NCBI GenBank assembly: GCA_023333565.1 | Contig: JAJKFH010000470.1 | Coordinates: 992,001 to 1,056,000, forward strand | DNA length: 64,000 bases | Source of the DNA: Puffinus mauretanicus | Lineage: Eukaryota > Chordata > Aves > Procellariiformes > Procellariidae | Reading direction: 5' to 3' | In this document: piece after piece, positions 5,079 to 64,000 of the stretch | How positions within the stretch are numbered: the stretch's first letter is position 1 | Layout: each line of letters begins with the position of its first letter | The notes under the pieces: generated by a model | Databases searched by the model: none | What the model was told of the DNA's origin: nothing | What the model saw: the letters and a program-made list of their open reading frames with translations, nothing else | Translations under genes and position numbers: made by a program

Positions 5079-5239
5079 TTCCTCATTGTTCCTGCGATTG
5101 TGGGTAGTGCCCTTCTCCACCGGCTTTCTGATGATCGATGGGAAAAGATAACAGCGTGGATGTATGGCATGGGGCTCTGTGCGCTCTTCATCGTCTCCAC
5201 AGTATTTCATATCGTTTCTTGGAAAAAGAGTCACTTAAG
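5079..5239 (+). CDS. MMD: MMD coding exon, residues 37-90
   Basis: The exon starts in phase 0 after tttcttag and ends in ...AGTCACTTAAG before donor gtatca, splitting Arg90 after two bases. It encodes transmembrane helices 1 and 2 and the first PAQR metal-site motif STVFH, with the loop [10 protein letters not shown] between the helices. Confidence 0.96.
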
Positions 5240-17700: not shown

Positions 17701-18897
17701 AGGACTTCTCCTGGAGGCACCAGAAGTGGTGTGAAGCCTCGGTTGTGTTGGGAGCCTGGGTCTCCAAAGCCGGCGTGGCATCCCTGCCAGCCACAGCGCT
17801 TGCAACGCTATTATTAAGTGACACCCCGGTGTTGATGCCACTAATCCAAAACCTTTGCACCTTGTAAAGATGTTTTGGTTTATATCTCCTGGGCTTGGGG
17901 AGGAGGAGGAGCAGGAGGGTCTGGTCTTGGGCATTGTGCCGTGGTCAGGCAGTACCCGAGCGGCTCGGGGCTGGAAGAGGAGCTCCGCCAAACTGAGCTG
18001 AAACTGAGCGGCCGAAAGCAGGCGTCGGTCCCCAGCTCAGCCTGGAACCGGGGGTACAACCTGGCTGTGGCAGGAGCCGGCCTCTCCTCGCGCTGCTTCT
18101 CAGGGGGAAGAGCAGGACCCGTTACCCTGAGATCTGCAGCCCCGCAGTGCCTGAGCGAGTTCACGTGGGCCGTTTCTGGAGGTAATTTTATAAATACCAC
18201 GCCGTATCTCATCTTTATCCTGCCTGGCGTGGGCGGGATGGGGGATTTTCAGCCCCTGGGTGGTGGGGGCGGAGGGGCCACGGGCCTGGGCTTCTCCGCC
18301 GGCCTCTCCTCACGGGCGGCCGGGCCCAGCCCCGCAGGCCTCCAGAGGGCACCAGGCACCGGCGGATTAAAAACTCAATTAAAAGCTGCCTTGATTGAGC
18401 TGGTCCTGGGTTATGGTCAGCACAGGCGGCGGCGCCTCGCTGGGCACCGGCGTCCCCCGGCTCTGGGGCGGTCGGGGTGTACCCGCGGTCTGGGGGCAAG
18501 GTGGCCCCCGGGGTTCGGAGGGGGCTGCTGAGCAAAGGGGCGATGGTGGCCCCTCGGGTGGGGGCACGGAGCCCGTCAGTATCTGTCACTGGTGGCGTCA
18601 ACGTTGTTTTAATGGCTTGGGGAGAGGGGTTGTGCCTGTTTAATGTTCTTTATTTGGCGTTGGTAGCCCGAGCGTGCGCCTTGGTGGGGCCGGGGGCCCC
18701 GGGCCGGCGGGAGCTCCGTGCCCAAAGCGGGGGGAACAAGGTAAAGCTGCGATGCTGCGGTGGAGAAGAGCCCGCCCGCTGCAGCCAGCGCTGCGCAAGC
18801 AGAGCTGCACACGCAAGTGGAGACCCCCCCCCCCGCCCTTGGTCTTGACGCTGTGCCAGGGCCCCCGCCCGGGGCACACGGGGGCTCGCCCGTGAGC

Positions 18898-18922
18898 GGC
18901 GGGGGTGGGGGGGGGGGGGGGG
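18898..18922 (+). repeat. G-run with quadruplex potential
   Basis: A short G-run and a T are followed by 16 consecutive G at about 18907-18922. This could form an intermolecular or slipped intramolecular G-quadruplex. A C-run on the same strand lies about 80 bp upstream (near 18825-18834). Confidence 0.85.
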
Positions 18923-19174
18923 TCTCTCCTCTCATCACGCCCGGGCAGCGGGGCCGGTGGCGGGGAGCCCCGCACGGCTGCCGCACGCACCGATCCCCTC
19001 GGCGCCTGTTGGGAAGCGGGTGGCCCCTGCGGTGTCACCAACCTCCAGCAAGGGTGCGAGGGGCCAGGGTCCCTCTGGGGCCAGGGCTTAAACCTGGGCC
19101 GCAGCGGGTCCCCTGCCATGGACTGACGGGGGCTTTGGGAGACTCCGCAGCCAGCGGAGGTGGCCTACGGGGAC

Positions 19175-19195
19175 GGACACCCCCCCCCCGTGTCC
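19175..19195. repeat. Perfect hairpin with C9 loop
   Basis: GGACAC (19175-19180), nine C (19181-19189) and GTGTCC (19190-19195) form a perfect 6-bp inverted repeat around a pure C loop. It sits at the edge of the GC-rich island, just before the AT-rich satellite. Confidence 0.85.
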
Positions 19196-20396
19196 TGCAG
19201 CAGGTTTGCTTTAAAAACACACACAGACGTACATATGTGTGTGTGTATACACATAAAACTGTTTATAGATATGTGTAAATCTCTAAATATATATCTATAT
19301 ACATGGATTTACATATATACACATACTGAAAATTTTTATCTATCACCATAATCTACATTATATATCTAAAATAGATCATTTTATATACTTATGTATTATA
19401 TTAAAATGCTACTAAATATGCTATACTACTACTACTACTAATTCTTAAATTTTATATGTACATATGTATGCTAATGAATATTGAATTGTATGTGAAAATC
19501 TTCTGACATATATATTACTATATATAAAAATTACAAACATCTCCAAAAGCATGTATTATCTTTTATATACATAATATAAAATACAATAATAAAAAGCTGC
19601 TAAATATGCAGCCCACCTAAGGACACACACCCCCACGCCCCGCACATCTGCACTGTGTGGGTACAGTGCTCAGATCGTGCAGTGGGACTTGGCACCCAAC
19701 AAAGTTTGGTGCTCGGGGCGGGGGTGGGGGTGGAGTGGCACTGAGGAAGGTGCACAGGCCAAGGGCAATTTTTTAAAGTATTTTCCTGTAAGCATGCCTT
19801 TATACACCACGAAAATCTATTTATAGATTGAAATATAAAATGAATTTATTAAAAACATGCTTTCTGAAAACATGATCATTACACTTATAGCTAGTTATCG
19901 ATATAGCCACACATGCACACACACAGACACCGCGCGTGCACCTCTATTAGAACAAATATACTTTGTGCGTAACATATAGTGTATATTAAACACAGAACTT
20001 TATAGCAATGATATATAATTTACATACATAAATATAAACCCAGATTATTAAATTCTGCTAAATATGCTGAATGAAAATACAACTGAATTGATATCTGTAT
20101 ATGCAACTGTATATAGACATCTAAACACACAGAGCTATAGCTACATAGACACAAGCACACACACGTAAAAGTGAGAGTGCATGCACCTACGTGTTTGTGT
20201 ATTATGACAAATCTATTTTGTGCATAACATAGCATTTGTCGTAAAAACAGACCTTTATAGCAATAAAATCTATTTTTATATATTACAAAGCTATATTAGT
20301 GAGTAAAGAGCGATAACTATACTATATGAAATAGAATTATTACATTTGTATCTATACAGATATACAGAGCGAGCGCAAGACTGAGCGATCCCGGCG

Positions 20397-23452: not shown

Positions 23453-26400
23453 AAACATTAAGAATAACAGACAAAAAAAAAAAATTTGGGCTGAACAGCA
23501 TACAGGATGCAATCCATTTCATGTCATACAGTTAATTTGATCTTATTTGTTAAACTTGTATTTAAACAGATGCTGTCTTGTGGTGTTGCCAGAAATACGA
23601 TGGTTGATCACTTGTAAGTTTTAATACACTTTTTTTTCCTTCACATAAAAAAAAAAGTCAAGAAAATAAAAATAAACTGCACATCTCTATTGTAAATTAC
23701 ATGCAAAAATAGTTTTAAAGCAATAAGTGGGGTTATTACAAACCCACAGAGGCAAGATATTCAAATGTTAGGGGTCCTTCGGCACTGCTGAACTCATCCC
23801 ACTTGCAGTTAGCGAGCGCGTTCGTGCTGGTCCGTGGAGGCACAACCCAGTAAGTCAAGCCCGAAGCCTTGCTCAGGCGCCTCCCTTTCATTTTGAATTT
23901 CTTGCTTTTGTGGATTCAAGTCAGAACTTTATTTCCATGGTGCTAGGTTTAGTGACTTTAGCACCATTCAAAAAAGAAAAAAAAATAATCCCCCCCCCGC
24001 CTCCTCTGCCACAGGCTTTCCCACGGAGAGCCCCAAGGTGCTCAAACGTCTCAAACACGTCTCAAATTCATTTTTAGAGGGCATTCTTTTTTAAAAAGAA
24101 AGAATTCACTTCTAAGATTCAGCAAAAATAATAAAAAAAAAGACAACAAGCATTTTACCAATGCTTATGGTTTAATAGAGGTCAGTGAATTATTTAGACA
24201 CACTATTAATTATTCTGCAAATATATATATTTCTATTCTTATAAAATTACAATTTCATATACCTACAAGCTCCTTCATGAGCAACAAAGCCATCAGAGGT
24301 GTGATGAGCCCAGCAAGCTCTCCTTGGGAACTGAAAATGAGCTAAACTTTCATTTATTTATTTGTTATTGTTATTTTGGGGAGACAGCCTGGTTAGAGAA
24401 CCTGGGTTTTTTCCAAGTTCTAGGGCACATATTTTGCCTTTTTTTTTTCCCCCCTCTCTTTTTTTTAAGAGTGAGCTTTTCAGAGGAGCCAGGGTGCCGC
24501 ACTCCCACGGTAAGCGGTGAGTGCCTAAGTCCCACAGGCTCCTCTGAAAGTCCTCACCCCCAAAAAAGAGAAGAGGCCAGCCTGCGCGGAGCCGGGTGCC
24601 CCGGCTGGCGCTGAGCAGCCCTTCCCGCTCGCTCCGGCACGCTTCCAACCCCCCGAGCCGCACGCTTGCCCGACGGCCCTCCCGCGCGGCAGGATGGGGC
24701 GAGCGGGCATCCGAGCAGCTCTGGGGCTGCTGGAGGAGGTGGCTGCTGGGAACCTCTGTGCTCCTCTGTGGCCGTGACAATAAAGGCGTGATATCCAGCC
24801 TACAAAAACTACCAGCTCCCACCCCTTCCCTGCCCAAAAGAAATAAAAGAATTATCTGTAATTTTCTTCCAAGCTGCCTTTTACATTTTAAAGGAAGTTT
24901 TGTGGTGACAATGCAACCCACCGATGGCCCTAGCTAGGTACGTACCCGCTGGTCTCATAGACACCGTTCCTGCTGTTCAAGCGTCACCCCGAGAACAATC
25001 ATCGTGAGGGCAATTAGCTGTTGCAATTTGCTATGTTGCTGCTAAAAGTGTATCCACAGCAGCGGCTGGCTGAGCCCTGCCACGGTCACGCTTCTTCCAA
25101 AGGACAAAAATACAGTTTATTTCATAGTGGCCTTAGCAGATGCACTGTCTCGTGCCAGACACTCTCAGTCTCGTTTCTCTACCCATGCATCCAGTGCTTA
25201 TACTGACTTTTAGAAAATAGCTTACTACGCTTTAAACTTTGCTGCAGCACGTGAAAATTCAATTTGCTGAATAAATGGTCCACAGGCAAGTACTGCACGT
25301 TAAGGGACGCTGACAAGTTGGGTATGTTTGAGGAAAAATACTGGAAAAATGCCATCGATGCGAGGATATTTTTAATGCTGCACAAAATGTTGAGTCCTTT
25401 GTAACAATCTCCTGAAGCATGAATAATGATTTAATGGAATGAACAACCTTTTTATTTGAAAATAATGTCAAAACACTTAGAAAACTGTGAGCAAGACATG
25501 TAGCACCATATTTTCCTCACATGTTAATAACCGTATGCAGTACGTACAACTGTATACATGAACAGAGCTATTTATAAAAAAATTTCAGCTGGAAACAGAT
25601 TCTAGCAGCAGCAGCAGATTAGAAATGACTATGAGTTTTTTTGTGTTATATATTATTTTTCTGCCTTTACAAAATATTGTATAGTCCAATCAAGAGTTGA
25701 CTAAAATCCATGTTGTGCTTTGTCCCTATTAAACAGATTCTTTATATGTTTCTGATGGAAAATAATAGAGTCTCTCTTTTTCAGAAATATGGAACATCCT
25801 GGAAAGCCATATTACTTCCATAAAAATTTAATTTAAAGCACAGAACATGCCGGTGTGCCAATGGTAGGCTTAAAATATTAAAGATTAAAAAAAAAAAACA
25901 ACCAACAAACCCCTAAGCATTTCCTTTCTGTACAATAATGGAGAATATATATCTTTGCTATATATTTTAAACATGGAATAGCTTTTTTTTTTGCTATATA
26001 TATGTCTTTCAAAATACATTGTCAGTATTTGTACTTGAAAAATACTGTACAAAACGAACATACTATAATTATTCTGTATAAACTTTATACATTTTATAAT
26101 ATCTATTCTTTTGGTCTATAGTAAACACTTAGATTGATTGGATTAACCACAGTATATGACAACACCATCCCCTTCTGAAATACACCAGTGTCTCTTACAT
26201 TCATTTTTCAGAAGTCCACTTTATCTTAGAACATACGTGTTCAAAAGCAAATAGAGAGTTTAAAACAAGAAAGTTCAGAACCATCAGTTCATGTCACACT
26301 CAAAACAACAATCACTAGGAAAAATGGGCTTTGCAAACCAGTGACTTCTTCTAACTGAATAAAAGTGATTTTTAGAACAGCAAGATATAATCCACAGAAA

Positions 26401-30800: not shown

Positions 30801-33800
30801 TTAATTTGGCAGATTTACCTTACATGAGAAAACAGATTCATGCTCAAAACCTGTATCTCAGAGTAACTGTCACAGAGTCTGTACGAACAACCTCGTCACC
30901 AGTTCCAATTTACCTTCAGGTCATCTGGAATGAAGACTTTGCGAGCTTTCTTAATCATGGGCTGTGGTTTCAGCTCTTCTTCAGAGAATTTGCGCTTACG
31001 AGGGTCAAACATCTCCTGGCCAGGAATACTGGAAAGAGCAAGATCTGCAGGGTCAGGTTCGTAGCCAACAGGAACTTGGATAGTCTCAGGATCAATGGGA
31101 CTTGGTGTGTTTCGGTTTGCTGGCAAGATCTGACCTACAGAAATAAAGGATAAATTCAGCTATGTTACAAGAAAATATGTAAATAATATTACTGAACATG
31201 GATTTTAGAAGATCTCTAAATACTTTACAAGCAATAATTCTTTAAGCTTTCACTGTAAATTTGGTATCTACTCTTGCTAAATATTAGATTGTCCATTTTG
31301 TAGGGTGCATATTCAGATCCAGACATGCTTATGCTGTTATTTTCAGAATTGGTTCCTAATTCTGGTTGCTAATCTTGGATGCCCACGTAAGATCACTGAA
31401 TCCAACACTGAGTTGCACTAGACTGCAGGCAGAAGACATACTGCTCCAACCCGTGCCACTTCATTAAGATCACATCCTCAGGAACAAATCGTAAGTACTG
31501 TCATTTAGCTCCGATTTATCCACCACACTGTAATCCTTCCCAGTTTTCTCATACACAGAGAGATATATACCTCTTCATATATACCTTTGAGGGTACGTTT
31601 AGTTTACAATCAATGTACAGTATTTGCAGTAGGACAATATCTCATGAAAATGTACTTTCAAGCTGTGCTGAAGCACTCCACTAAGGAGACTGCTATTTTC
31701 TATGAAATCCTACCGGTGGTATTCTAAAAGACAATGAAGGAAACTAGCAACATGAAAGGCTACAATGACTACTTAAAGATGCTCTGCAAAAATGAACGAA
31801 CACTTATTTACGCCACATGGCTCTTTTATGATATATAAAATCTACTGAAAAGGAGCCTATCCCCAGAAAAGAATGACACCCCCCCATTTTTCTTTTTTAA
31901 TCTTAGATATAGCCTTCAAGATCCTACAGCATCAATTCAGACACCATTCCCACTAAAAATCCAATTTAAAATCTCCACCAAAGGTTCCAAAAATAGGATC
32001 CTAAAGTCAGCTGCCTAAACATGGACTATCCCCAGGGGCAGAATTTTCAGAAGTTTTCACATGCCTCAGAAGTACAAGCCTCACAGACTTCAGAGGGAGA
32101 CTTCTGATTGATGCAGATATTCTTTTATAATTTTGGCTATTAGCTAATTCACTTTGACTTTAAAGATGCGACGGCTTTCATAATAACTACACAAACATCC
32201 TGTGACTGCATAATATTTCCTTACTTGTGCCCGCATCTGCAATATTTAGGGTGTAAAATGGTAAACATTAAATGTCATTTCTAATTCCAAACCAAGGCCA
32301 GTGTTAACAATGTAGTTTTTATTTTAATCTAGAAGATCATGGCAACAATATTGGAACTGCATAGAAAATGCACCGGGGAATCGCATTGCGCAAACCAGGG
32401 CTTGCTAACAGACAGCTTGTCTTTTGTAACTCATATTTTAAAACAGCTCTGATAAAATCAGCTTCCAGGAAAGGCTAGTAAGGGCCTGGGAGAAAAGGAG
32501 GATCAAAGTTATTAAAATGTATATACATCAATAGGAGAGGGAGCGAGAGGAAAGGATCCCGCTACCCGCGTTGTGCCAACAGCAGAGCGCTTCCTCCTCT
32601 GCCTCCGCAGCCGGCACGCCGCTGCCAAGGCCTCGGTGCCGAAAACTTGACGTTTCCTGCTGCACCTCGTCAGTAAAACCAGAAACCGCGGCCCGCCCGA
32701 CCACCGGCCGCAGGGGCGGCGGCAGCGGCCTCTCCCCGCGCTGCCCGCCCGGGGGCGCGCCCGGCCGCCGCCGCCTCGCCCGCCCCGCGGCGTGGGACCG
32801 GGGGGCCGCGTTCCCCAGCCCACGCCCCGCGTGCTCCAGCAAGCGACAGGGGATTACAGGGAAAGGAGACGGCCTGCTCGACCCTGTTTGCCTGGCGGGT
32901 TTTCACCAGCAGGCGCCTCGGCTCTCCCCGAGGTAGCTGCGATTAGTGCTTGTGTGTTTACAACGTTTCGGTCTCTGTGAAGGTGGTGGTGGGGAAACCC
33001 AGGCTGGTGACTGTTTTAAAGGCAGCCCAAACGGCTCAATGCACCAAAGCATTCTTGTAGCCTTGCTTTAAATGGATGGCTAATCTCGTTTCGGATATAT
33101 CGGCTGGCAGAAACAGGCTTATTTAAAGGATTAAGTGCAGGAAAGCTGCCTTTCATGTGAATACGCTTGTACCAGAGCAGCCAGGTATTTTTTTAATGCA
33201 GACAAATATATAGACGTACGCAGGTACAAATCTTGCAAAATCTGTAATCCAGATAAAAATGAAGCAAGACACTAGCGTGAATACTTTTATGATATTTCTG
33301 GTGAGCATGCAGGGTGTTTCTAAAAGTCAAGTGGATTGTGAAATCTGCCCTAAACAAAAGAGCCTGTATTTAAATATTGCTGAAGTTCTAGATACACAGT
33401 ATCAGTTCACATATTATCATTTATCTGTAATGTGCCATATTACACAATTACACGAGCTTTGTAATCACTGGCCTCAAGAAATTTTACAGTATCTCTCTGA
33501 AAAAAAGAAAGAGCAAAAACGCTTCTTTTAAACACGGGGAATTGAGGTATTACATCTTACCAATAGCAAAATAAAGGAGAGAGCAATGCATCTCCAAGGT
33601 GATCTGGGAGAACAACCTACAGCAATCAAGAGCCTGCCTTGTTCCCTACGTGCACGCATTTCCCTTCCCCCGGTCTAAGAAGCTCTCGCTACTGAAGACC
33701 CGGTCCTTCAGCAAACATAAGATGTCCCAGGTGCCAATGCAAAGCTCGTTCAAGCTATCACTAATGCAAAGCCTGAACAAATCATGTGCACACCTAAATG

Positions 33801-51800: not shown

Positions 51801-54800
51801 TGCATGCTAATACATCGATCTGTGGGTTCCTGTCAAGTTTTGTTTCAGTAATAATCTAGACTTGTGTTCCAGTTAATAAGGACCTGAGTTTTCTAGGACC
51901 CTAATGCAATTTGGATTTTTTATTTCCTCTTACAAACAGCCATACACCAAAACACAAGCAAAGAGCTCCAAGAGAAACTTTTTAGCAGGGCCTTTTGCAA
52001 CAGGACAAGGGGTAATGGTTTTAAACTGAAAGAGGGTAGATTTAGACTAGATACAAGGACACGATTTTTTACGATGAGGGTGGTGAAACACTGGAACAGG
52101 TTGCCCAGAGGTGGTAGATGCCCCATCCCTGGGAACATTCAAGGTCAGTTGGACGGGGCTCTGAGCAGCCTGATCTAGTTGAAGATGTCCCTGCTCATTG
52201 CAGGGGGGTTGAACTAGATGGCCTTTAAAGGTAACTTCCAACTCAAACTATTCTATGATTCTAAGATCCTCAATGCCTGTTTTCATTAAATGGCAAATAA
52301 CATGAACAAGAGAATACTACCAGTAAGATTGAGAGCTAAAGCTGTTTCTCTCAAAGTTGAGCAGAGAACCCTGAAGCAAGAGCATGCCACAACAGAGAAG
52401 CTAAGCAATGGTGTTGGATGGTGTACAATGAAAATCTGGGCCAAATTTAGCCCTGGCAAGATTTAGTTCAGAGAATGAGACAGGGAAGCATAACTGTACA
52501 ACAGCTTCAAGCGTGTCAGAAATGCGAGAGGTTGAACAATAACTTGTATTCGTTTAAAACTTGATGGATAGCACCTCAGTTATGCAAAGCTGAAGTGCTG
52601 TGAAGAGCCCTAGCAGAAAAGAAAAAAGAAAAAGAAAGAAATGTTGCAACACATGCTGCTACCTACCTGTGTTAGCTCTCCCTACATTAGCTCTGAAGAT
52701 CTCAGGACCGAATTCAGCTTTGTGATAAATAGACGGCTTCTTTAATACCATTTGTTCATTAAAAAAAAAGGCGACACAAGGTACAAAATCTGTTTGTCAT
52801 GCATTCATTTTGACAGTCGTGCACGTCACATTCATTTTCTATACTAACTCATTATGTATAACTTACTCCAGTAAATGGAGTAGATTTGAGGTTTAAGTAA
52901 ATGTTTTTTTTCAGAGCTTTCATTATCTACTCAATGTAGAAGAGATCAAACCACAGTTTTTCTTGAATATAACTTAGTTGAAATACTCGTCTGATCATCC
53001 CAGTCTTCTGTGGAACTCAGACAAAACATTGAAAATATATGTTTTTTGTTATGAAAGCGAGACTTCAAAAAAAGGAAACTTATGATCACGTTTGTGTGAT
53101 ACAAATACTAAATAGCTCCATAGTGTACTGCCAGCCAACCAAGCTTCTGATTTCATAATGCTCTAAAGTCCTCTTTACCGATAACGAGTATGTCCTTTCA
53201 TCCTGAGAAAACTCCACTGGTGCACCGAGAGCCATTAGCCCCCTTAAAAAAGAATGAATGACAAGAGAGAGAATGGTGACATTTTGCTGCTCCTCCTAGG
53301 AGTTGATGAAGGAGAGTCAACAAGCTGCTCTCCTGCTGAGCAATACTGAAATCGGTAAGACTGCATGAGGAGTAAAGTACTCATCGCTGAGATTAACTGG
53401 GCAGAATCTGGCCACTACTAGCTCCTAAAATTGCCAATCTGCTGTCCTATAAGTATGTAGAGATTGAAACAATTAATGTGTTTCCTAGTACCTTCATCTA
53501 TTCAGATAATAGTATCTTCTTCGTATACATCTCCTGATGAGGTCTTCTCTTAACTATAACATATTGTTTTATGAAAGACTTCAGGGTGTACTCGCTTCTT
53601 AAAAATCAAATCACTGCACTAGAGAATCATTCGAACAAACTCTCTCCAATACACTTTAAGATAGGAAGCAAGGCGCCGAGAAAGACACTATACTTTTTCT
53701 AGGTAATTGCAACAAGTTTGACACGCAGACATCCTTGAAATGTCTTTCTAAGGGGACCAAAAAACCCTACTTGTTCCCTCTGTGTACCCTCTTCCTAACA
53801 CTGCATAGCCCTTACTTGCCTAAGTAGCTCTATCTGTGTGGAAAGCGCTATTCCCGATGAGAACTGAAAAGTCAGGCCAGGTATATTTTTAAAGTATCGC
53901 ATAAAACTCAAGATGTTTCACACTGTTTACTGTTTGAACTCCGAATTAACTTCAAGTTCTTTCATGCAGTCAAGCAATTATTCAACCAATAATCAACATT
54001 TAACAGTGAATATTAAAATTAGATCTCTTGAAGGAGACACAGTGTTCTTGCTTCTAGCATTAACTCGGCTTGTGCGTTCAGCACTTTCTTCCCTGTTGTC
54101 ATGTGACAGGCTATTTTTAATTTTTGCCTGAATATATTTTGCATCTTCCTTTGATCCAGAAAGCAGTTTTGTGAGGCTTGTCTGCATATTGCACTTCCCT
54201 TGCCGTGGCAGTCCAGAGCGAAGCTTTTCCATTTCACTGCAATTTCGGCGTCGGCTGGTAATGGCAGGAGCACACAGCCGTGCGTGCGTGCCTGCTGCTC
54301 TAGCAAAAGCCATGCTGAGCAGGCTGCACAGGGGACTGCCACGTGCCGAAAGCACGTGGTCATGCAGGCAACAGCCACCCAGAGCCTCACGTGAGAGCCA
54401 ATGTGAAGAGCAGCTCTCGGTACCAGCCTGCCTGACGGTTTAGCTGGTCCTTCCCATGTTGTCACGTGGGAGAACAAAGGTCAGGAAATTCCCAGCTCCT
54501 CTTGGAGCTGGAGGTAGAGTCCTTCGACTCTAAGAGAGGGGGCTCATGCTGTGGCTCATGCAACACCTCGTAACTGCTTGTAAACAATGATTAAAGCTTA
54601 GGAGAGGATTCCACATACAAGCTGGCTGCTGGGAATGCTGCCCTTCACACTACAAAGGCTGTGCTGGAAGAGGAGGTCACATTAAGAAACACAGGGGAAG
54701 GAAGACTGCAATAAAGGGAGTGTTGCGCACACACCCTTTTGTGGGCTGCCCCCTTCACCAAGTTATCCCCAGCATGCAGTCGAGAGGCTGGATGGAGCAA

Positions 54801-57530
54801 GAACCAGCCTCTCCCAGTTGGCTGCTGTGCCTATCACAAACAAGAGTTAAAAGAAAATGCCGAAAACCACCAATCACACCTAGTGTCAATCATTACAGTT
54901 CAGTATCTATGTAAGAAGTAAAAGGTAATACTTTTACCTTTTACCTTAAAAAGGATACTGCGCTCTAGATGAAATATCTCAGCTAAATAAATAAAACATG
55001 GCATTTAATAAAATCTTTGTGCTCTTGCAGGGGGGTGGGAGGTGTAAATACACTTCACATGGAAACAGTTTTCAGCTTTTTGATTAATGTACCCCTAAAT
55101 CTTTTTTTTTTTTTTTTAATATGAAAGTGAAGACTTGCAGATACTGCACATATATGTATCTCCACAGCAGATCACAAAGCTTATTTTTCTTTTTTTCTTT
55201 CCTTAAATAATCTTTGGCAGATCCTTTGCAAGAAGTCTAAGACACCCAGCCATCCAGGCAACACAGACTGAAAACCACTGTCACAGGAATGCAAAGAATG
55301 AGGGAGTTTTTTCAAAGCCTCTGACAGCCCTATGCTCCTTAAGGAGCAGGGTAGTAACAAAACATGGGCTATCACTCTGTCGGCAGCATCCCCGTGACAT
55401 GGCCCTACATCCAAGGCTTTGATGGCAAACAAAATTCGGATCTAAACCACAAAATCCCCAAAACCTTCTAATTAGGGTCTTCCACCAGACTTAGCTGATG
55501 CTTCTGAACTCTAATTCACTCCGTTCAAACCCTTTACAGTAGCTGCCCCATTCACCCAAATAAGGGCTACACAGGGAAAAAAAGCCAGGTAAAAGCAACC
55601 ACCAACTAGTTACCTGCAAAATACAACCCTCCCTTTACATACAAACAGCTACAAATACTCCCGATTTCCTTAAAGGACTCTGCGGTTAAATGGAGATTTA
55701 TGTTCCACCAAAAAAATGGCAGAAGATAACACAAGGTCTGCAACAGATTAAGAGCCAAGAAAATGTGTTCACAGTAACAGGTTACTTTAAAAGCTAGCTT
55801 TATAAAACCTGTTTTTCTGAGGGAGACTACAGATTTCAGCCAACTAACGAGCATCCAATACAGGGAGAGAAAAGAAGTTCCAAATGTGTCTACACATTAC
55901 AATGAACGGTGGTCTGCAATGAAAAAATAGTATTTGATTTATTTTAGATTAACAAAATTGGCACTGTGAAAAAGAAATACGTCAGATTCCAATCTTGCAA
56001 CAGCCATTACCCTGCATCCCTCTTCTTCAAAAAGAGAACGAGTATTTGCTATACGTACATTCCCCGAACAGGAATTTATGGGAAAGTAGCTTGCTTTATT
56101 CTTTGCCATAGCCCAGAGAACAGATGATAAACTGGTGAGCCTAAACATTTTCCCATCAGCCAGACAATCCAAGCTGGAAATACAGAACCAAGTTAAATCT
56201 ACAAGGAAACTTTTTTTGGTGGTTTGTTGTGGGGGTTTTTTTTTTTTTACTTTTAAGGAAAAAAAAAAAAAATCAGTGAGGATTTTGTAACGTCGTATTT
56301 ACTGTCAGGGTCAGCTCAGCTTTGCTGAGCCTGATGACACTACTCAGTGACTGCCAATGCAGATTTCCAGATCTCTTCCAGAGATAGTATAAAATACATA
56401 TTTGGGCAATACCATTAGCTTCTAAAGACAGATGAGGCTTGTATTTCAACACACACACAAAATTAAGTCTTCTTATGCCACTCTTCTATAGACCCTCTAT
56501 GTCCGAGATACACCATGTACGTGCATGAGTCACATTCGGTGTTCCACGTGCATGTGTACGTCCTCCCCCTACACAGTACATGCAGGTATAGGAGTTTTGA
56601 CCAACTGCACGTGATACGCTGATGCTAAATGCTGCGGAGCCATTTAAAGTAGGGACATAAGGATTTGACCCTGCCTTCAGCCAGAGTCTACATGCTCAAA
56701 CAGGCTTCCATCGTAACACAAAAATCCAGAGGACACAACAACGAAATATTTTTAGGAGAATTACTATCACCTAAAAAATTCAGTTTTCCTAAAAATAAGA
56801 TCACATGGAATTAATTTTTATTGAAATTGTATAGTTTATACTATTTGTTCCCGGGTTTGTTACAATAATACAAATCACAACAGCCATGCATATTGGAATG
56901 GTAGCTCCCACCAGTTAAAAAAACCCTTTCTTCATGTGACAGTTTAAAAAAAGGTATTTTAAAAGTTTTAAGATATATTAACCAAAAGGCTCCTTTATAA
57001 TGATTTTAACACTTACCTCCAGACTAACTTTCATATTTTGAAACAGCACATTTGCCTTGGCACTTTTATGACAACCTTAAATGCTCATTTTTACTTTTAC
57101 TAAAATCTTGGTTTTTAAAATATATACCATCTTATTTTAAAACTTGCTCAAATGCTAAACTCTAAGATGATCTTCCCTTCAAAACAGATTGTCTAAGTAT
57201 GATTTTTACACAACAGCACATAAAAATTTCAACAACCTGATGATAAACCAGACTACTGTTAAGTAAGTCATAGTACCGATCTGTAATAGGGAGGGAAAAA
57301 AGAAAATATTATTTTAAGAAATAGAATGAGCTCCCTTTTAAAAAAACACATTTAACCAAAAAATTATATTATTCTTAAGGCAAGGTGGTGTGGGGAAAAA
57401 ATACCTGCAAATTTAGATGGTTTATCCCACCCCAAGAGACATGACTTCTTTTACAACAGTAAAAAGCGTACAGGGAGCTTCTAGGGAGAAAAGTTTGTAA
57501 GGCTGAGCTGCAAATGGCTCAGGAAAAACT

Positions 57531-57561
<31 letters not shown>

Positions 57562-60500
57562 ATGAGTTGAAAAGTCATGCGGACAGCTGATTACAAATAA
57601 ATTCTGACAGGTGATCATTAAAAGCCTGGCTCATAACCAGGCTCCTCTGAAAAAAAAGAATGAGGACAGATTATCTGCTTTTAATTTTAGGTGCGCATAT
57701 GCGACAGAAAATGGTGTAGCATATACGCACTATTTTTAAAAACTGGCTCAGAAAAAGCAAGGGGTTTTTATATTCTGCTCTTGCCAACTCCAAATATATT
57801 TTAACTTTGGAAACCCTTTTAAGTTATTAGTTAACTATGAAATACCTTGAAACTGAAATACACAACAAAGTCAAACCCACATAAAGTAAAAGTGAGTAAA
57901 TGAAATCCACAGCTAAACACACACTTCTGACTTGGGGCCAAGGAGCCTGTTGACAGGTTTGGGGTGTTTTGGGGGGTGTTTTATTTCTTTTTAATGAGAA
58001 AGGAATGTTACAGACTTGTAAGACTTTTCTATTTCATCCTGCTCCACAATTTTTGTCCTTCTATTTATTTATTTTGCCTCCTTATCAGATGATTCTGACA
58101 ATGACTTCGCACGCTGAGCGTGGCAAACGATCAAGCAGAAGGGAGAGGAGTGGTTTCCTGCTCCCAAGAGCACACTTTGCTCTAGCAAACCTCGTGTGAG
58201 CAGAAGAGCACAATAAATAAGTCACCCTTGGTCTTTTTTTTTTTTTTTTTTTTTGAAGAAAAAGGGAAAGCTCCGTGTTTTCCAAACTTCAATGTTGACA
58301 TTAATCCACTGACCGTGATCTCAGCCATGCTGGTGTCAGGCCAGAGCAGTTATTCTGAATTCGTACTAGTGTCTCTAAAGGGATGATTCCAACTGCTAAT
58401 AAACTAATAGAAGACTTCCACTGACATCAAACAGGTTTGAATCATGCATTACAATCAGAACTTGGACTCCATGATGTTTTCTTTGCCTACAGCTTAAGGT
58501 GACTATAGACGTAATTTATCAACTCAGGTTAGAGTTACGCTCAGTTTATCCTAATTTAAGCAAGATTATAATGCAGTTCCAAAATTTAGTTCCTGCGCCA
58601 TGTACTGTGGCACATTTTACTTTGCTTAATAGCGAATAAGATTATGGCCAAAATTTCAAACAGGAAGCATTGTCTTTAAGTTTAACTTCAAAATAATTGC
58701 CCACTCCTGTGTTCTCACATCAGATATTGGCCAAAGGAATATTCTCTTTCACAGTCCTTCTCCCTGTTCATTTAACACTATGGCATCTACACATTACTGT
58801 TCTGTTTGTGGTCTTTTTACTTGCTAATAGCTAGGCTATCAATGAAGAAAAGAAGATAGGCAAGTTTCTTTGGAATTCCCACAGTTTCCTTACATAATTT
58901 AAACAAAAACCCCTGTGGAGCAAATTAGCAATAACTAGAGCTATTATTTTTATTTTTTGGAGTGTGAGTGACTCGAATCACATTGGCTCTCTCTAAGCTG
59001 CCTGTCAACCATACAGGGAGAAGCAATTATTTACACTGGAGAGGAGGGTTCATGCCAAAATCCATAGGAAGTTCTTAGGTCTGCTTTACCTGGTCTGACC
59101 GGGCTCTGCATGCAGTTCTGCGACACCATGCCTGGATGGACTGAAGTAGAAGCCCTGCTGCTGAGGTCCATGACAGAAGGTGATGCTGAGGTAGCTTGCT
59201 GGAGACCTGACTGGTGTGGGCTATGCTCGTGCTGGTTTGGGCTGGGTGGAATGCCATTTTCTGAGAGGAATTCTTCCAGGTCCATGTATTCCAACTGGAA
59301 AGTGTCTCCATCGTATGGCAGTGTCTTGTCCCATAATGTGGGACCCAAGAAAGCTGACTGAGGGACTGTGGTACTGGTGCTGTCATCATCTAACTTCTTC
59401 TCTTTGTCTTTTTCTTTACCGAATGCTTAAACAAAACACATAATAAAGACATAAGAGCTCAGTAATTAAAATATTTGCTACTACTACTCCAATTATTTCT
59501 GCTGCACTCTCAGTTGTAAGAAACAAATACTCCCTTCGTAAAAAGAACTCCTTTGATTCACTCTGTGTTGACGGGTCAAGCTAACTGAGCACCTTTGCTG
59601 GATCCAACCATGTTTTTGAGATTTTCCTCTATTTTTAGTTAACAATTCCACTGCATGCATGGCTTTGAACGTCAGCTTCAATAAGTACTCAACAAACTTA
59701 AAAGTGAGTATTTAACTTACAGCAAACTGGAAGATGTTGCTGTATTCTGGTGAAAAGGAACAGTCTTAACCTAAAATCCCCACAATTTATTATCCTGTCA
59801 TACTTCTAAATTAAGGTCCCAGTCTTGCTAGTCCTTACACAAGGAAAGTAGTCCTCAAATTCAGTACTTCTTAATATTACTAACTTACAACACTGGTGAC
59901 GTCTGAATATGTGTTCTGATGTGCAGAAGAGCTAACAAAAAATTCAAAAGTAGAAGCAAAACAACAAAAAAAAAGTTAAAATGATGCTTCCTACTCAGTA
60001 TCCAGTGATTTCAAGACACATATTTGAAGGGGAACACCTGGTTCCTCTACAAGATTTGCAAGAATCTGAACCGATAAAGCTTTCCATCAACTACCATGCC
60101 TTCTTAACATTTTCCTCTTAACCACATGCAACAACCCCGGTGAAATCTTGCGAGTCGCTTTGCAATGAAACACGGAAAGCTGAGGATAGAAAAACCCTTG
60201 GCTCTGCAAGAACTTTCATAGGGTTTCGTTTTTAATGTGCATTTGATTCACTGGAAAAACAAAGTGCAATTATGTCCGCACTACCTTAGCTTCCCAGAAA
60301 AACTGCAACTTTCTACTGTTAAAATGCCTTTCAGTTATACGGGACCATGTTTCACGGAGGGTGGTTTTCCAACGGCGGAGCAGCCGGCCGCCCCGAGGGG
60401 AGGCTGCGGCGGGACCTCGCCTCAGGCTTGGGGGGGGGTCCGTGTCGCCGCCCTGCGCGCCCCCCTCTACCCAACACTTCGCCCGAGGCACATCATGCCC

Positions 60501-60955
60501 TTTATTTTTCCAGGCGGCCGGAGCCGTCCCCGCGGTGGCTCCGCAGCGGCGAGGGAAAAGCCCAGCGCCTTCCGTTAGGTCAGGCCGGCTGCGCCCATGG
60601 CTCACCGCCTAACACCCTCACCGAAATCATCCCACCGCTTAATCGCCTTGGGGGACGGGGGGGGCGGTCGGAGGGAGGGGAAAAAGGGAAAGCGAGGCAG
60701 CGGTCCCTGAGGAGAGGGCAGGACGGGGGCCGCCATGTCGGGGCGCCTGCCCTCACCGGGCCGGGCTGTGAGGGGGCCCAGAGGGGCCGCGGGGGGCAGA
60801 GCCGGCCCCGGGGGGCTGGGGGAGCGAGGGCTGCCCGGGGAAGCCTCACCGTCTTCGTGAGCGAGCGGCAGCTTGAGCGGGTTTTCCAGCAGGGACTTCA
60901 GCACCCCGTAGGTGGGAGGTAGGAAGGTGGGGTTCAGCGGGAGCGGCCGCGACAT
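27594..60955 (-). CDS. HLF: HLF, PAR-family bZIP transcription factor, complete coding sequence
   Basis: Joining complement 60955-60850, 59425-59090, 31134-30914 and 27809-27594 gives 879 nt: 292 residues plus TAA, in frame, with GT-AG at every intron. The N-terminus is [20 protein letters not shown]. The conserved activation segment [20 protein letters not shown] is at 63-82. A proline- and acidic-rich PAR region lies at about 165-222. The basic region has the bZIP signature NNMAAKRSR (N232, R240), and the zipper heptads are I250, L257, L264, L271, C278 and Y285. The C-terminus is [12 protein letters not shown] binds TTAYGTAA-type sites as a homodimer or with DBP and TEF. In vertebrates it acts in circadian output, hepatic and neuronal gene control and haematopoietic stem cell identity. 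The exon 3-4 boundary splits PAR from bZIP, as in mammals. The paralogues TEF and DBP are excluded by the HLF-specific N-terminus and by the MMD neighbour. The protein is three residues shorter than human HLF (295) because the MEK start extension is absent. Confidence 0.97.
27810..30913 (-). other. HLF: HLF intron 3
   Basis: A 3.1 kb intron separates the PAR exon from the bZIP exon. It contains a GTTGCGTAAC element at 30721-30730. No additional exon or recognisable repeat is seen. Confidence 0.85.
30721..30730. promoter_or_regulatory. GTTGCGTAAC, C/EBP-PAR bZIP consensus site
   Basis: The decamer fits the C/EBP consensus RTTGCGYAAY exactly and differs by two bases from the PAR consensus RTTAYGTAAY. 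It lies in HLF intron 3, about 190 bp downstream of exon 3. Occupancy is unknown. Confidence 0.4.
30914..31134 (-). CDS. HLF: HLF coding exon 3: PAR domain
   Basis: The acceptor is tttctgtag and the donor is gtaaat. The exon completes Gly148 and encodes [20 protein letters not shown] through [13 protein letters not shown] (residues 149-221). Prolines, acidic residues and the [16 protein letters not shown] segment identify the PAR domain that contributes to DNA-binding specificity. Confidence 0.96.
32560..32935. other. HLF: Small GC- and CpG-rich island in HLF intron 2
   Basis: About 370 bp with many CpG dinucleotides and G+C far above the surrounding intron lies 1.4 kb upstream (in transcription order) of HLF exon 3. 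It has the appearance of a small CpG island and could be an alternative promoter or enhancer. Its open frames on both strands show no similarity I recognise. Confidence 0.55.
45218..47984. promoter_or_regulatory. Loose group of five CACGTG E-boxes in HLF intron 2
   Basis: CACGTG occurs at 45218-45223, 46794-46799, 47548-47553, 47814-47819 and 47979-47984; the last three fall within 440 bp. Two share the extended form agCCACGTGAT. Occupancy is unknown. Confidence 0.4.
46582..46604. repeat. A23 homopolymer
   Basis: An uninterrupted run of 23 A in HLF intron 2, followed by purine-rich sequence, with no recognisable SINE body. Confidence 0.95.
50401..50408. promoter_or_regulatory. TTATGTAA, PAR bZIP D-box core
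   Basis: An exact match to the TTAYGTAA core bound by HLF, TEF, DBP and NFIL3, located in HLF intron 2. A single 8-bp match may be chance. Confidence 0.3.
51925..52266 (+). mobile_element. CR1 LINE 3' fragment
   Basis: The 3' end of a CR1 element is clearly recognisable in + orientation. Phrases include 'ggacaaggggtaatggtttt', 'gaaacactggaacaggttgc', 'gtggtagatgccccatccct', 'tgcaggggggttgaactaga' and 'aactattctatgattctaag', ending in the ATTCTATG-type 3' repeat typical of CR1. It is 5'-truncated and non-coding, and lies antisense to HLF in intron 2. Confidence 0.92.
54340..54468. promoter_or_regulatory. HLF: Cluster of four canonical E-boxes (candidate CLOCK:BMAL1 enhancer)
   Basis: CACGTG occurs at 54340-54345, 54353-54358, 54388-54393 and 54463-54468. 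The first two are separated by exactly 7 nt (ccgaaag), matching the E1-E2 tandem arrangement preferred by CLOCK:BMAL1. The surrounding stretch is richer in G+C than the rest of the intron. The position is in HLF intron 2, 4.6 kb downstream of exon 2. The function is inferred; USF, MYC/MAX, MITF or HES/HEY factors could also use these sites. Confidence 0.55.
54918..54944. repeat. Perfect 11-bp inverted repeat with 5-nt loop
   Basis: GTAAAAGGTAA (54918-54928), loop tactt (54929-54933) and TTACCTTTTAC (54934-54944) form a perfect hairpin in HLF intron 2. Confidence 0.85.
56545..56613. promoter_or_regulatory. Two further CACGTG sites in HLF intron 2
   Basis: CACGTG is present at 56545-56550 and 56608-56613, 57 nt apart, about 2.1 kb from the four-site cluster. 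Confidence 0.35.
57531..57558. repeat. A28 homopolymer
   Basis: An uninterrupted run of 28 A, the longest homopolymer in the window, in HLF intron 2. No retroposon body is recognisable next to it. Confidence 0.95.
58234..58254. repeat. T21 homopolymer
   Basis: An uninterrupted run of 21 T in HLF intron 2. Confidence 0.95.
58890..58897. promoter_or_regulatory. TTACATAA (TTATGTAA on - strand), D-box core near HLF exon 2
   Basis: An exact PAR bZIP/NFIL3 core lies about 190 bp downstream of HLF exon 2. Autoregulation or cross-regulation by DBP/TEF/NFIL3 is possible but unproven. Confidence 0.3.
59090..59425 (-). CDS. HLF: HLF coding exon 2: transactivation region
   Basis: The acceptor is ttgtttaag and the donor is gtaaag. 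The exon completes Ala36 and encodes residues 37-147 plus the first base of Gly148. It begins with the lysine-rich [14 protein letters not shown] stretch, followed by the conserved activation motif (residues 63-95) and a serine/proline/histidine-rich segment with the VMDLSSRAS motif. Confidence 0.96.
59426..60849 (-). other. HLF: HLF intron 1
   Basis: A 1.4 kb intron with donor gtgagg and acceptor ttgtttaag. Its first half (about 60350-60849) belongs to the CpG island and contains long open frames on both strands that I regard as compositional. Confidence 0.85.
60850..60955 (-). CDS. HLF: HLF coding exon 1, residues 1-35
   Basis: The ATG at 60955-60953 has a good context (cccaccATGt). It opens [20 protein letters not shown] and continues [15 protein letters not shown]; the last base is the first of the Ala36 codon. 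An in-frame TAG lies about 22 codons upstream and no in-frame ATG lies between, so this is the natural AUG start. An in-frame CTG at 60988-60986 in weak context could add 11 residues. Confidence 0.93.
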
Positions 60956-61190
60956 GGTGGGCTTTCCCTCGGGGCAGCTGCGCGGCAGCGGTTCCTTCCC
61001 CTTCCTCTCGCGGCGCCGCTACGAAGCGCGGTGAAACGGGCGCAGAGCCGAGCCGAGCGCCGCTGGCGAGGGGCGCCTGGAGGCCGCCGGAGCAGGGGAG
61101 CGGGAGAGGCCCCTCCGCCGCGCAGCTCCACCACCGCTGCCCGCGCCGCTCCCGCCGCCCGCTCTGCGCCGCGCGCCCCGGCCGCGCGCC
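60956..61190 (-). other. HLF: HLF 5' UTR and core promoter (approximate)
   Basis: The transcription start cannot be read directly. From the positions of the CCAAT box and CRE it probably lies between about 61120 and 61200. An out-of-frame ATG at 61193-61191 would open a 115-codon upstream frame ending at 60846, across the HLF start, but only if transcription starts beyond it. Confidence 0.5.
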
Positions 61191-61212
61191 CATGTGCAGG
61201 CGCTGCCGGCGC

Positions 61213-61220
61213 TGACGTCA
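61213..61220. promoter_or_regulatory. HLF: Perfect cAMP response element TGACGTCA
   Basis: The full palindromic CRE (gcTGACGTCAgg) lies about 260 bp upstream of the HLF ATG in the CpG island, a typical position for a functional CREB/ATF site. Confidence 0.6.
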
Positions 61221-61238
61221 GGCGCGGCGCGGCACCGC

Positions 61239-61244
61239 CATTGG
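61239..61244 (-). promoter_or_regulatory. HLF: CCAAT box
   Basis: CCAATG on the - strand (+ strand cattgg) is 19 bp upstream of the CRE in the direction of HLF transcription, consistent with NF-Y binding. The adjoining ttggcgcggg also resembles an E2F site. Confidence 0.55.
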
Positions 61245-61494
61245 CGCGGGAGGTGCGGCGGACGGCCCCGCCCCCCCGCTCCGCGCCGCCCTGCCGGGGG
61301 TGTTTCCCGCCCCGGGCCTCCCCCCCCCGCCCCCCGGCACGCGCGGAGGCCGTTACCCGCGGCGGGCCGGGGGCAGCGGCGGGGGGGGCGCCAGGGCCGG
61401 CCCGCGCGCAGGGTGTCGGCGGGGAGCGCGGCCTGGCCGCTCCCCCCGCCCGCGGGGAGCCGCGCCTGGCGAGGCCGCGGCCGGGAGCCGTCTC

Positions 61495-61507
61495 CCCGGT
61501 AACCGGG
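61495..61507. promoter_or_regulatory. CCCGGT-A-ACCGGG near-palindrome (CP2/Grainyhead-like)
   Basis: Perfect 6-bp inverted repeats flank a single central A. The ACCGG core resembles CP2/Grainyhead sites. It is about 540 bp upstream of the HLF ATG. Confidence 0.3.
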
Positions 61508-61773
61508 AGGAATGTTAATGAGTTTGAATGTTTGACCCCGCTCGGTGCATCCGAGCGTGAGGGCAGCGGGGAGCGGGGTGGGCACCCCCCGCCGCCGCGG
61601 CCTGAGGGACCCGGGCCGTGCCGCCGCGTGAGGGGTGGCGGGTCGCGCCCAGCCCAGCGGGGAGCGCCGCGGGCTGAGGGCGGCTGCGGGGGACCCGGCG
61701 GGGGAGCCCGCCGGCGAGCTGCCCTGGCCCCGAAGGAGGCGAGGCGAGGGGTGTTTTGACCCATTCCTAAGGG

Positions 61774-61781
61774 AACCGGTT
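61774..61781. promoter_or_regulatory. AACCGGTT, Grainyhead consensus
   Basis: The palindrome AACCGGTT is the optimal GRHL core. It lies at the upstream edge of the HLF CpG island. Confidence 0.35.
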
Positions 61782-61789
61782 ACTGGGCT

Positions 61790-64000
61790 TGGGAGCATTT
61801 CGCTTCGGAACCACAGCGGATCTTTTATACGTCTCATTTCCGTAAGCAGAGTGCTTCTCTCACCAGTTACCAAGATAAACCAGGGTGAGATAGCTGTTAC
61901 CACCGGGTTCCCGGTATCTTGTCCCAATTTTGTGTCGGAAGGGGCTTTCCCCTCTGCTTGCGAAGATCCTCCTTGCAAGTACAGTTGACTTTCTACCCGC
62001 TTAGGCCTTCAGGAACTAAGCCCTGCCGGTGTAGACTGTTCAAGAAGTGCAGTCTTGCTGTAGTACCTTCCACCCTTCAGGTGCTTGTAGGCATTTGCAC
62101 CTCCCTGCTTCTCATGGTTTTTTTGGATGGCATTTTGCAAAGCTTTACCATCCATATTTAGTTGTTAATCTTTCTTCAGAAGTCAGTTCTTTTACCGCTA
62201 ACAAATATAGATAATAATAAAGGAAAGTAAATAAAGATAAATTATATGCACAAACTTTTACTTGGAGTGCCCAGTATTTAGAAATAAAAGCTGAGGAACA
62301 GAAGGCTGCCTTGAACAGTTATGTCCTCCCCTATGTATCGGTCTATGATTATGTGCACTGACTAGCGTCTGGTCAAATGATCCGACTAAAACACGCAACT
62401 CACCAAAATCCAAAGTATATTCAAATCAATAAAATTGCACTGGCACAACCAAAACCCGAAGACTGGCAACTGTAATCGTCAGGCCCTTCAGAACCAGAGA
62501 CAGCGTAACATTAACATATTTATGGCTACCAGGGAGCAGGGGTTATGGAGGAACCTTCAAATGCCGCAGAGGTGGCATCGTTCACGACTGGAGGGGCTTC
62601 CAGCGGGAATGCGACAGTAGCAGCACAGTAGTTTTTAAGTCACCTAACCAGGAAAAAAGCACTAGATTATTAAATGATTGTACACATACCAACGTTGCCT
62701 CAGCTGGCCAAATTGCTAGTTACTGGCAACCTTTAATTACAGAGGTACAGAGGGAGTGACAAAGGTTAGGGCAACAATTGGCAATCCATATGCAGATGTG
62801 GTACAGAATGTTTTTTCTATGCAGTATAAAGAAAAAAAAAAAGGATACATTTAGGAGATTTGGCAAGCAAGAAAGAAGAGTAAACAGAATAGAAGATGCA
62901 AAAGTAATGGGGATATTGGGAAACACCAGTAACAAACAAGATTAGTTAGGGATGTAATGAAAGCTCAACTTGAGCAGAACTGCTTAGGTTTTTATGGTTA
63001 TTGACCATTACAGAGAAAAAATACTCAACAGAAACAGCATTTTCAGTGCAGCAGAATGACAGGAAAACCGTGCTGTTTCACTGCTTGACATCGAGTAGGA
63101 TACATTATGTGCAGATCTGTGCAAGCGTGGAACAAAATGAAGCAACCACTGAGGACTGCATACAATTACAGAGCCTGCATTCCCAACGCGCAGGAGTTGG
63201 GAATTTCCTGGGTGAGAAAGCTGAAACAACTCTTCCCGATATAAGGACCAGGCAGAAAAGCTGAGCAAAGTACTCGAGTGTGGTTCTCGAGCTGTTGTTT
63301 TCAGTCTCACACTACAACAGGAGCAGTAACTTAACTCCAGCCTGGCCACGCAGGCAGGTTTCATACCAAGTAGCCTAAATCGCCGGGCTGTCAGGACACC
63401 ACGTTGTTTCTGAACGGGAGTGTGTGTGTACCTATGAGTTACCGATTTTGACTGGCTACGCTTTTCCAAAGGTGGTCCCCAATTCCTTCATGCTATTTTG
63501 ACCGCTGGCTGACCCCACACGCTACACTCCAGGTAATTCTAACACAACCAAAACAGAGCTAATGATACACTAAATGGGTTTCTTCCTTTTCCAACCAAAA
63601 TACCATTTGTTGGCATGTATTCTTAGGTTAGCATTCACCCAGAAAACGTTTATTTTATGGCTTATGAAGGACTATGACAGCTACTTAGTTTTTGTATAGA
63701 AAATATCTTGATTGGTCCCCAATTAAAAAAAAAAAATCTCAGCCAATGTTTGTGTTTCTGCCCCGGGTGTTTTCATAACAGAAATTTGATCAGTTATATG
63801 GCCCAAAGGTCCTATTTTTTTCAAACCGAGTACACGAGATAATATACCATTTTCCGAGTTCATCTTTTTTTTTAATGTAACCCTTTTCTTTAGCAAAGAC
63901 AATTTGAAAACACAATTTTAAACTCAAAAAGCCTTTTTAAGGGGTCCTTCCACCTACAGGCCAAGCATACCAGGATCAGACGCCCCTGTTGTAGCAGAAG
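61790..64000. other. Upstream flank of HLF, no gene recognised
   Basis: Mixed to AT-rich sequence with short A-runs and no exon I can support. By synteny with mammals the next gene beyond HLF would be STXBP4, but nothing here shows it. Confidence 0.6.

What the first reader, a model, noticed from the sequence alone, without database searches (positions are those of the whole stretch)
54340..54468. Four CACGTG E-boxes in 129 bp of HLF intron 2, two in a 7-nt-spaced tandem
CACGTG contains a CpG and should be rare in this AT-rich intron, roughly one to a few per 28 kb by my estimate. Four copies lie at 54340, 54353, 54388 and 54463, and the first pair has a 7-nt spacer. Tandem E-boxes spaced by 6-7 nt are the known high-affinity arrangement for CLOCK:BMAL1, and the sister gene DBP is driven by intragenic E-boxes in mammals. 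I infer an intronic circadian enhancer, or an alternative promoter, of HLF.
Basis: partly seen in the sequence, partly recalled or inferred. Interest (0 to 1): 0.75.

Follow-up and report, generated by a model that had tools for sequence, protein, structure and literature searches.

The report
Tandem E-box cluster in HLF intron
An intron of a bird's clock-output gene HLF holds four copies of the DNA word that clock proteins bind, two at the spacing they prefer; this probably marks an ordinary but unproven circadian enhancer.

Summary
CACGTG lies at 54340, 54353, 54388 and 54463, and the first pair is separated by exactly 7 nt. The gene is HLF on the minus strand; the cluster lies in its 28-kb intron 2, 4.6 kb past exon 2. 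The encoded protein is 100% identical to golden eagle HLF, so the genome is a bird's. The exact tandem occurs 45 times in the 1.21-Gb genome, so about 0.001 is expected in this intron. Against over-reading, spacer 7 is not favoured genome-wide (45 places; mean 68 per spacer for 4-10). Published work supports the grammar: CLOCK:BMAL1 binds 6-7-bp tandems cooperatively, mouse Dbp has such a site in intron 2, and mouse Hlf has three BMAL1 sites. Best reading: a CLOCK:BMAL1-responsive intronic enhancer of HLF, a new member of a known kind, at moderate confidence. The alternative-promoter idea has little support. Conservation and occupancy could not be tested.

The parts
54340..54345 (.). E-box 1 (CACGTG), first half of the tandem
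   Evidence: exact match
54346..54352 (.). 7-nt spacer CCGAAAG
   Evidence: sequence; spacer computed
54353..54358 (.). E-box 2 (CACGTG), second half of the tandem
   Evidence: exact match; one of 45 exact CACGTG-N7-CACGTG places in the 1.21-Gb genome
54388..54393 (.). E-box 3 (CACGTG) inside TCACGTGA, the only TCACGTGA in the window
54463..54468 (.). E-box 4 (CACGTG) in context TCACGTGG
54475..54483 (+). CAAAGGTCA, HNF4/DR1-like half site (motif name recalled), 6 nt after E-box 4; the only exact copy in the window
59090..59425 (-). HLF exon 2 (the cluster lies 4.6 kb downstream of it)
   Evidence: tblastn with recalled human HLF; splice borders
30914..31134 (-). HLF exon 3 (end of intron 2)
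60091..62160 (-). CpG island holding HLF exon 1 (start codon at 60955), taken as the promoter; no CACGTG from 56614 to 64000

Best explanation
The stretch 54340-54468 is most likely an intronic enhancer of HLF that the clock drives. Shown: two perfect E-boxes 7 nt apart plus two more within 110 bp, in intron 2 of a bird HLF gene whose promoter region (56.6-64 kb) has no CACGTG. Inferred: two CLOCK:BMAL1 heterodimers bind the tandem cooperatively, loosen the nucleosome, recruit CBP/p300 and raise HLF transcription once a day from the upstream CpG-island promoter. Boxes 3 and 4 add single sites that CLOCK:BMAL1, or other bHLH proteins such as DEC1/2 or USF, may share. The resulting HLF protein would then drive D-box output genes.
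For: Cluster far beyond chance in the intron. Exact N7 tandem only 45 times in 1.21 Gb, about 0.001 expected in this intron. Of those 45, three have four E-boxes in 129 bp; the other two look like a CpG-island promoter and a minisatellite. In mouse liver, E1-E2 tandems with 6-7-bp spacers bind two BMAL1/CLOCK dimers cooperatively, a canonical-canonical pair works like wild type, Dbp carries such a site in intron 2, and Hlf has three BMAL1 sites (passages of PMC3043000). Tandem E-boxes 7 bp apart raise nucleosome-bound CLOCK-BMAL1 from 19% to 51% (passages of PMC10338342). HLF is listed among circadian genes differing between light and dark in chicken liver (passage of PMC12649623).
Against: Spacer 7 is not enriched among CACGTG pairs in this genome: N7 45, N6 82, and 475 in all for spacers 4-10, a mean of 68. 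Most N7 tandems therefore need no clock explanation. The two contigs with Period_C matches (C116, C302) hold no exact N7 tandem. The promoter region lacks CACGTG but does hold looser variants (CACGCG 61338, CGCGTG 61625, CACGTT 63400, CACGAG 63833), so E-box input there is not excluded. No conservation, chromatin or binding data were available. The mouse Hlf BMAL1 sites are not located in the text that I could read. The gene was recognised as a clock gene before the motif was weighed, so some selection is involved.
Confidence: 0.5

Rival explanations
1. A chance cluster: a GC-richer, CpG-richer patch of intron in which CACGTG happens to recur, with no function.
For: The patch has GC 0.57 and 17 CpGs in about 400 bp, against GC 0.41 and 400 CpGs in 27.9 kb for the intron. 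CACGTG is over-represented in the whole window. Chance tandems exist (45 N7 and 82 N6 genome-wide, 254 places with three E-boxes at gaps up to 30), and most of the 50 triple places listed look like satellite DNA by eye. Spacer 7 is not preferred. Placement on random intron CpGs gives such a cluster in 1.1% of trials.
Against: 0 of 1800 Markov simulations give the cluster. No other CpG-containing hexamer does this outside CpG islands and a microsatellite-like stretch. About 0.001 exact tandems are expected in this intron. No tandem-repeat array was found there, and no other copy of the stretch in the window beyond one 19-base match.
Confidence: 0.27
2. A functional E-box element for other bHLH factors (USF1/2, MITF/TFEB/TFE3, MYC-MAX, DEC1/2) rather than CLOCK:BMAL1.
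For: CACGTG is shared by all of them (recall). Box 3 is TCACGTGA, the only one in the window, and box 4 is TCACGTGG; from recall these flanks suit TFE/MITF, DEC and USF.
Against: These factors are not known (recall) to need a 6-7-bp tandem, which is here exact. The host gene is a BMAL1 target in mouse.
Confidence: 0.18
3. An alternative promoter inside intron 2 that makes an N-truncated HLF.
For: Rat HLF is reported in a title to encode two activators with distinct circadian rhythms (Falvey 1995, seen only in a reference list). Three mammalian protein models (P0122, P0123, P0130) start with other sequence joined directly to exon 3, and mouse isoform 3 (P0126) has an extra segment between exons 2 and 3.
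Against: No CpG island at the cluster, and no TATAAA or GGGCGG within 53900-54900. None of the 239 best-listed homologues gave a separate match inside intron 2; matches overlapping exon 3 by up to about 36 bases of intron were not separated, and short segments would be missed. Alternative 5' coding sequence of two bird models maps upstream, at 62.4 kb and at 60.96-61.19 kb. A better intron-2 promoter candidate is the CpG island at 32281-33250.
Confidence: 0.05

Closest known systems
Mouse Dbp intron 2 E1-E2 site (Dbp-I2), BMAL1/CLOCK bound (PMC3043000, passages)
   Same: PAR-bZIP clock-output gene, second intron, E-boxes in tandem; when this site's spacer was varied from 4 to 20 bp, 6-8 bp (and 17) worked best.
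   Different: The natural mouse site pairs E1 with an E2 whose replacement by E1 kept activity; here both boxes are perfect CACGTG and two further boxes follow. Binding here is untested, and homology of the two sites is unknown.
Mouse Hlf BMAL1 sites (three, PMC3043000 Figure S2 legend)
   Same: Same gene in another vertebrate.
   Different: Their positions are not given in the text that I could read, so identity with this site cannot be judged.
Por distal enhancer tandem E-boxes, 7 bp apart (PMC10338342, passages)
   Same: Two E-boxes 7 bp apart in an element described as distal to its gene; nucleosomal binding by two CLOCK-BMAL1 protomers shown by structure.
   Different: Mouse, with a different gene and flanks.

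Membership tests
CLOCK:BMAL1 E1-E2 tandem E-box element | Two E-boxes separated by 6 or 7 nt | tested here: met
   54340 and 54353, spacer 7
CLOCK:BMAL1 E1-E2 tandem E-box element | At least one canonical CACGTG | tested here: met
   both are canonical
CLOCK:BMAL1 E1-E2 tandem E-box element | Rhythmic BMAL1 occupancy in vivo | not testable with these tools
   no bird ChIP data at hand; by title and abstract I saw no bird BMAL1 ChIP-seq among the 15 of 34 papers listed
CLOCK:BMAL1 E1-E2 tandem E-box element | Sequence conservation of the site | not testable with these tools
   the tool says that this genome has no relatives here
CLOCK:BMAL1 E1-E2 tandem E-box element | Host gene is rhythmic | tested here: inconclusive
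   literature passages only: HLF among light/dark genes in chicken liver; mouse Hlf bound by BMAL1
Alternative promoter | CpG island or core promoter motifs at the site | tested here: not met
   no island at 54 kb; no TATAAA or GGGCGG within 53900-54900
Alternative promoter | Transcript or protein isoform starting there | tested here: inconclusive
   no separate intron-2 match at E 1e-3 for the 239 best-listed of the 2647 and 776 homologues found; non-coding or short first exons would be missed
CLEAR/MITF-TFE element | TCACGTGA core at the sites | tested here: not met
   only one of four boxes; motif recalled

The most novel reading that the evidence does not exclude
The intron-2 tandem E-box enhancer is shared by descent between HLF and DBP, inherited from the common PAR-bZIP ancestor before the vertebrate genome duplications, and in birds it is the main E-box input to HLF because the promoter lacks CACGTG.
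Probability: 0.07. Interest if true: 0.65.

Novelty: new member of a known kind. Interest (0 to 1): 0.33.

Why it matters
If real, it gives a compact, testable circadian input site for a PAR-bZIP clock-output gene in a bird; I saw no bird BMAL1 binding map among the 15 of 34 papers listed. It would let one ask whether paralogous clock-output genes keep the same intronic control site.

Tried and rejected
Rejected: protein-coding domain at the cluster (10 open frames from the window scanned with Pfam, four of them in or beside the cluster, 0 families). Rejected: local repeat (self-comparison of 53900-54900 against the window found only itself and one 19-base match; no tandem array); I had no library of bird transposons to compare with. 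Rejected: known structured RNA (0 Rfam matches in the window). Led nowhere: scan of viral contigs for the tandem (0); papers on an Hlf intron, enhancer, promoter or locus (5 papers, none clock-related by their titles); bird chromatin paper PMC10877898, whose passages speak of HLF as a footprinted factor, not of its enhancer; passages of PMC12716789, PMC8240256, PMC5393560, PMC6839265 and PMC6627103, which say nothing on an HLF intronic site.

Planned but not obtained: positions of TEF, DBP, NFIL3, DEC1/2 and REV-ERB genes relative to the genome's tandem sites (families PF07716, PF07527, PF00105). The search machine did not complete these.

Full report
What is there. The window holds 20 CACGTG sites, four of them at 54340, 54353, 54388 and 54463. 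The first two are separated by CCGAAAG, exactly 7 nt. The surrounding gene is HLF on the minus strand. A recalled human HLF protein matches four blocks, and the splice borders give exon 1 coding 60955-60850, exon 2 59425-59090, exon 3 31134-30914 and exon 4 from 27809. The joined reading frame is 292 aa, carries the bZIP_2 domain, and is 100% identical to golden eagle HLF, 99% to the two other bird species named among the best hits and 96% to a turtle. The cluster lies in intron 2, 4.6 kb past exon 2 and 6.5 kb past the start codon.

Is it more than chance? Intron 2 holds 12, against 1.7 expected from dinucleotides, 3.7 from trinucleotides and 7.7 from tetranucleotides; 12 or more arose in 0%, 8.2% and 7.7% of 600 simulated introns at Markov orders 2, 3 and 4. 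In 24 other ten-kb loci from the same genome the background is 38 sites in 230.4 kb. These loci were chosen because they carry a tandem, and the tandem neighbourhoods (within 200 bp) were left out of the count. At that rate 4.6 are expected in the intron; 12 or more has probability 0.003, or 0.045 for 9 or more if the cluster counts once. The clustering is the strong part. It was reached in 31 of 200,000 uniform placements, 659 of 100,000 placements on window CpGs, 1137 of 100,000 on intron CpGs, and 61 of 100,000 without the CpG island near 32.5 kb. It was reached in none of 600 simulations at each of three Markov orders, while a bare 6- or 7-nt tandem arose in 0, 1 and 4 of 600. Among all CpG-containing hexamers, four copies in 129 bp are otherwise seen only in CpG islands and one CACGCA microsatellite-like stretch.

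Genome-wide view. The exact tandem CACGTG-N7-CACGTG occurs at 45 places in 1,211,937,486 bases, so 0.0024 are expected in a window of this size and 0.0010 in this intron. Among those 45 places, three have four CACGTG within 129 bp: HLF; L035, a very GC-rich promoter that I take from recall to be TUSC2; and L038, which reads as a minisatellite. Of the three, HLF alone is in ordinary intronic DNA. For the 45 places I held 10 kb for 24, 1 kb for 20 and the window itself for HLF. Three E-boxes with gaps of at most 30 nt occur at 254 places; of the 50 listed, by eye all but about a dozen look like satellite DNA, and HLF is among that dozen.

Results against the reading. Spacer 7 is not preferred in this genome: 45 places, against 82 for spacer 6 and 475 for spacers 4-10 together, a mean of 68. 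The tool warns that its DNA search skips simple repeats and very common words. The two contigs with Period_C matches hold no exact N7 tandem. So perfect tandems as a class show no clock signature in what I could test, and the case for HLF rests on the coincidence of a rare cluster with a gene already known to be BMAL1-controlled in mouse.

What it probably does. In mouse liver BMAL1 sites are enriched in tandem E-boxes with 6- or 7-bp spacers, bound cooperatively by two BMAL1/CLOCK dimers. In the Dbp intron 2 site, replacing the second box with a canonical one kept wild-type activity, and spacers of 6-8 bp (and 17) worked best. Hlf has three BMAL1 sites (passages of PMC3043000). Structural work shows two CLOCK-BMAL1 protomers on a 7-bp tandem in a nucleosome (passages of PMC10338342), and tandem binding on internal nucleosome sites is linked to CBP/p300 recruitment (passages of the preprint PMC12424780). 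Human U2OS sites are enriched for 6-bp tandems, in a paper that does not name HLF (passages of PMC4090172). HLF is listed with PER2 and CRY1 among light/dark genes in chicken liver (passage of PMC12649623). In this bird the HLF promoter region from 56614 to 64000 has no CACGTG, so intronic boxes are the natural place for canonical E-box input; looser variants do occur there (CACGCG 61338, CGCGTG 61625, CACGTT 63400, CACGAG 63833). I therefore favour an intronic CLOCK:BMAL1 enhancer acting on the upstream promoter. Every step from binding onward is inference.

Rivals. Chance remains real because nothing tests function. Other bHLH factors share CACGTG, and box 3 (TCACGTGA) and box 4 (TCACGTGG) have flanks that, from recall, suit TFE/MITF, DEC or USF. 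An alternative promoter is unlikely: there is no CpG island and no TATAAA or GGGCGG nearby, and none of the 239 best-listed homologous proteins gave a separate match inside intron 2. That test is weak for short segments: mouse isoform 3 has an extra piece between exons 2 and 3, three mammalian models join other sequence directly to exon 3, and none of these pieces matched the window. CAAAGGTCA, an HNF4/DR1-like half site (name recalled), follows box 4 by 6 nt and is the only exact copy in the window; it hints at a liver enhancer but is a single short motif.

Limits. The search machine failed on most requests, so the positions of other clock genes relative to the 45 N7 and 82 N6 tandems were not obtained beyond the Period_C matches.

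Noticed in passing
32281-33250: CpG island inside HLF intron 2, about 1.1 kb upstream of exon 3. A better candidate for an alternative or antisense promoter than the E-box cluster; one open frame there (32535-32933) gave no Pfam family.
   Followed up: partly
15661-19390 (and 24451-25110): Several CpG islands between the convergent genes MMD (matches of a recalled human protein at 5079-9065, + strand) and HLF. Five open frames in or beside them gave no Pfam family.
   Followed up: partly
47548, 47814, 47979; 56545, 56608: Further CACGTG groups in the same intron: three in 437 bp and two in 69 bp. 11 of the intron's 12 sites lie in 45.2-56.6 kb.
   Followed up: no
50401 (+) and 58890 (-): TTATGTAA D-box matches in intron 2, possible autoregulation by PAR-bZIP or NFIL3 proteins (motif recalled).
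   Followed up: no
62429-62500 and 60963-61193: Stretches matching N-terminal parts of hoazin (P0017) and golden eagle (P0001) HLF models, i.e. possible alternative 5' coding sequence upstream of the usual start.
   Followed up: partly
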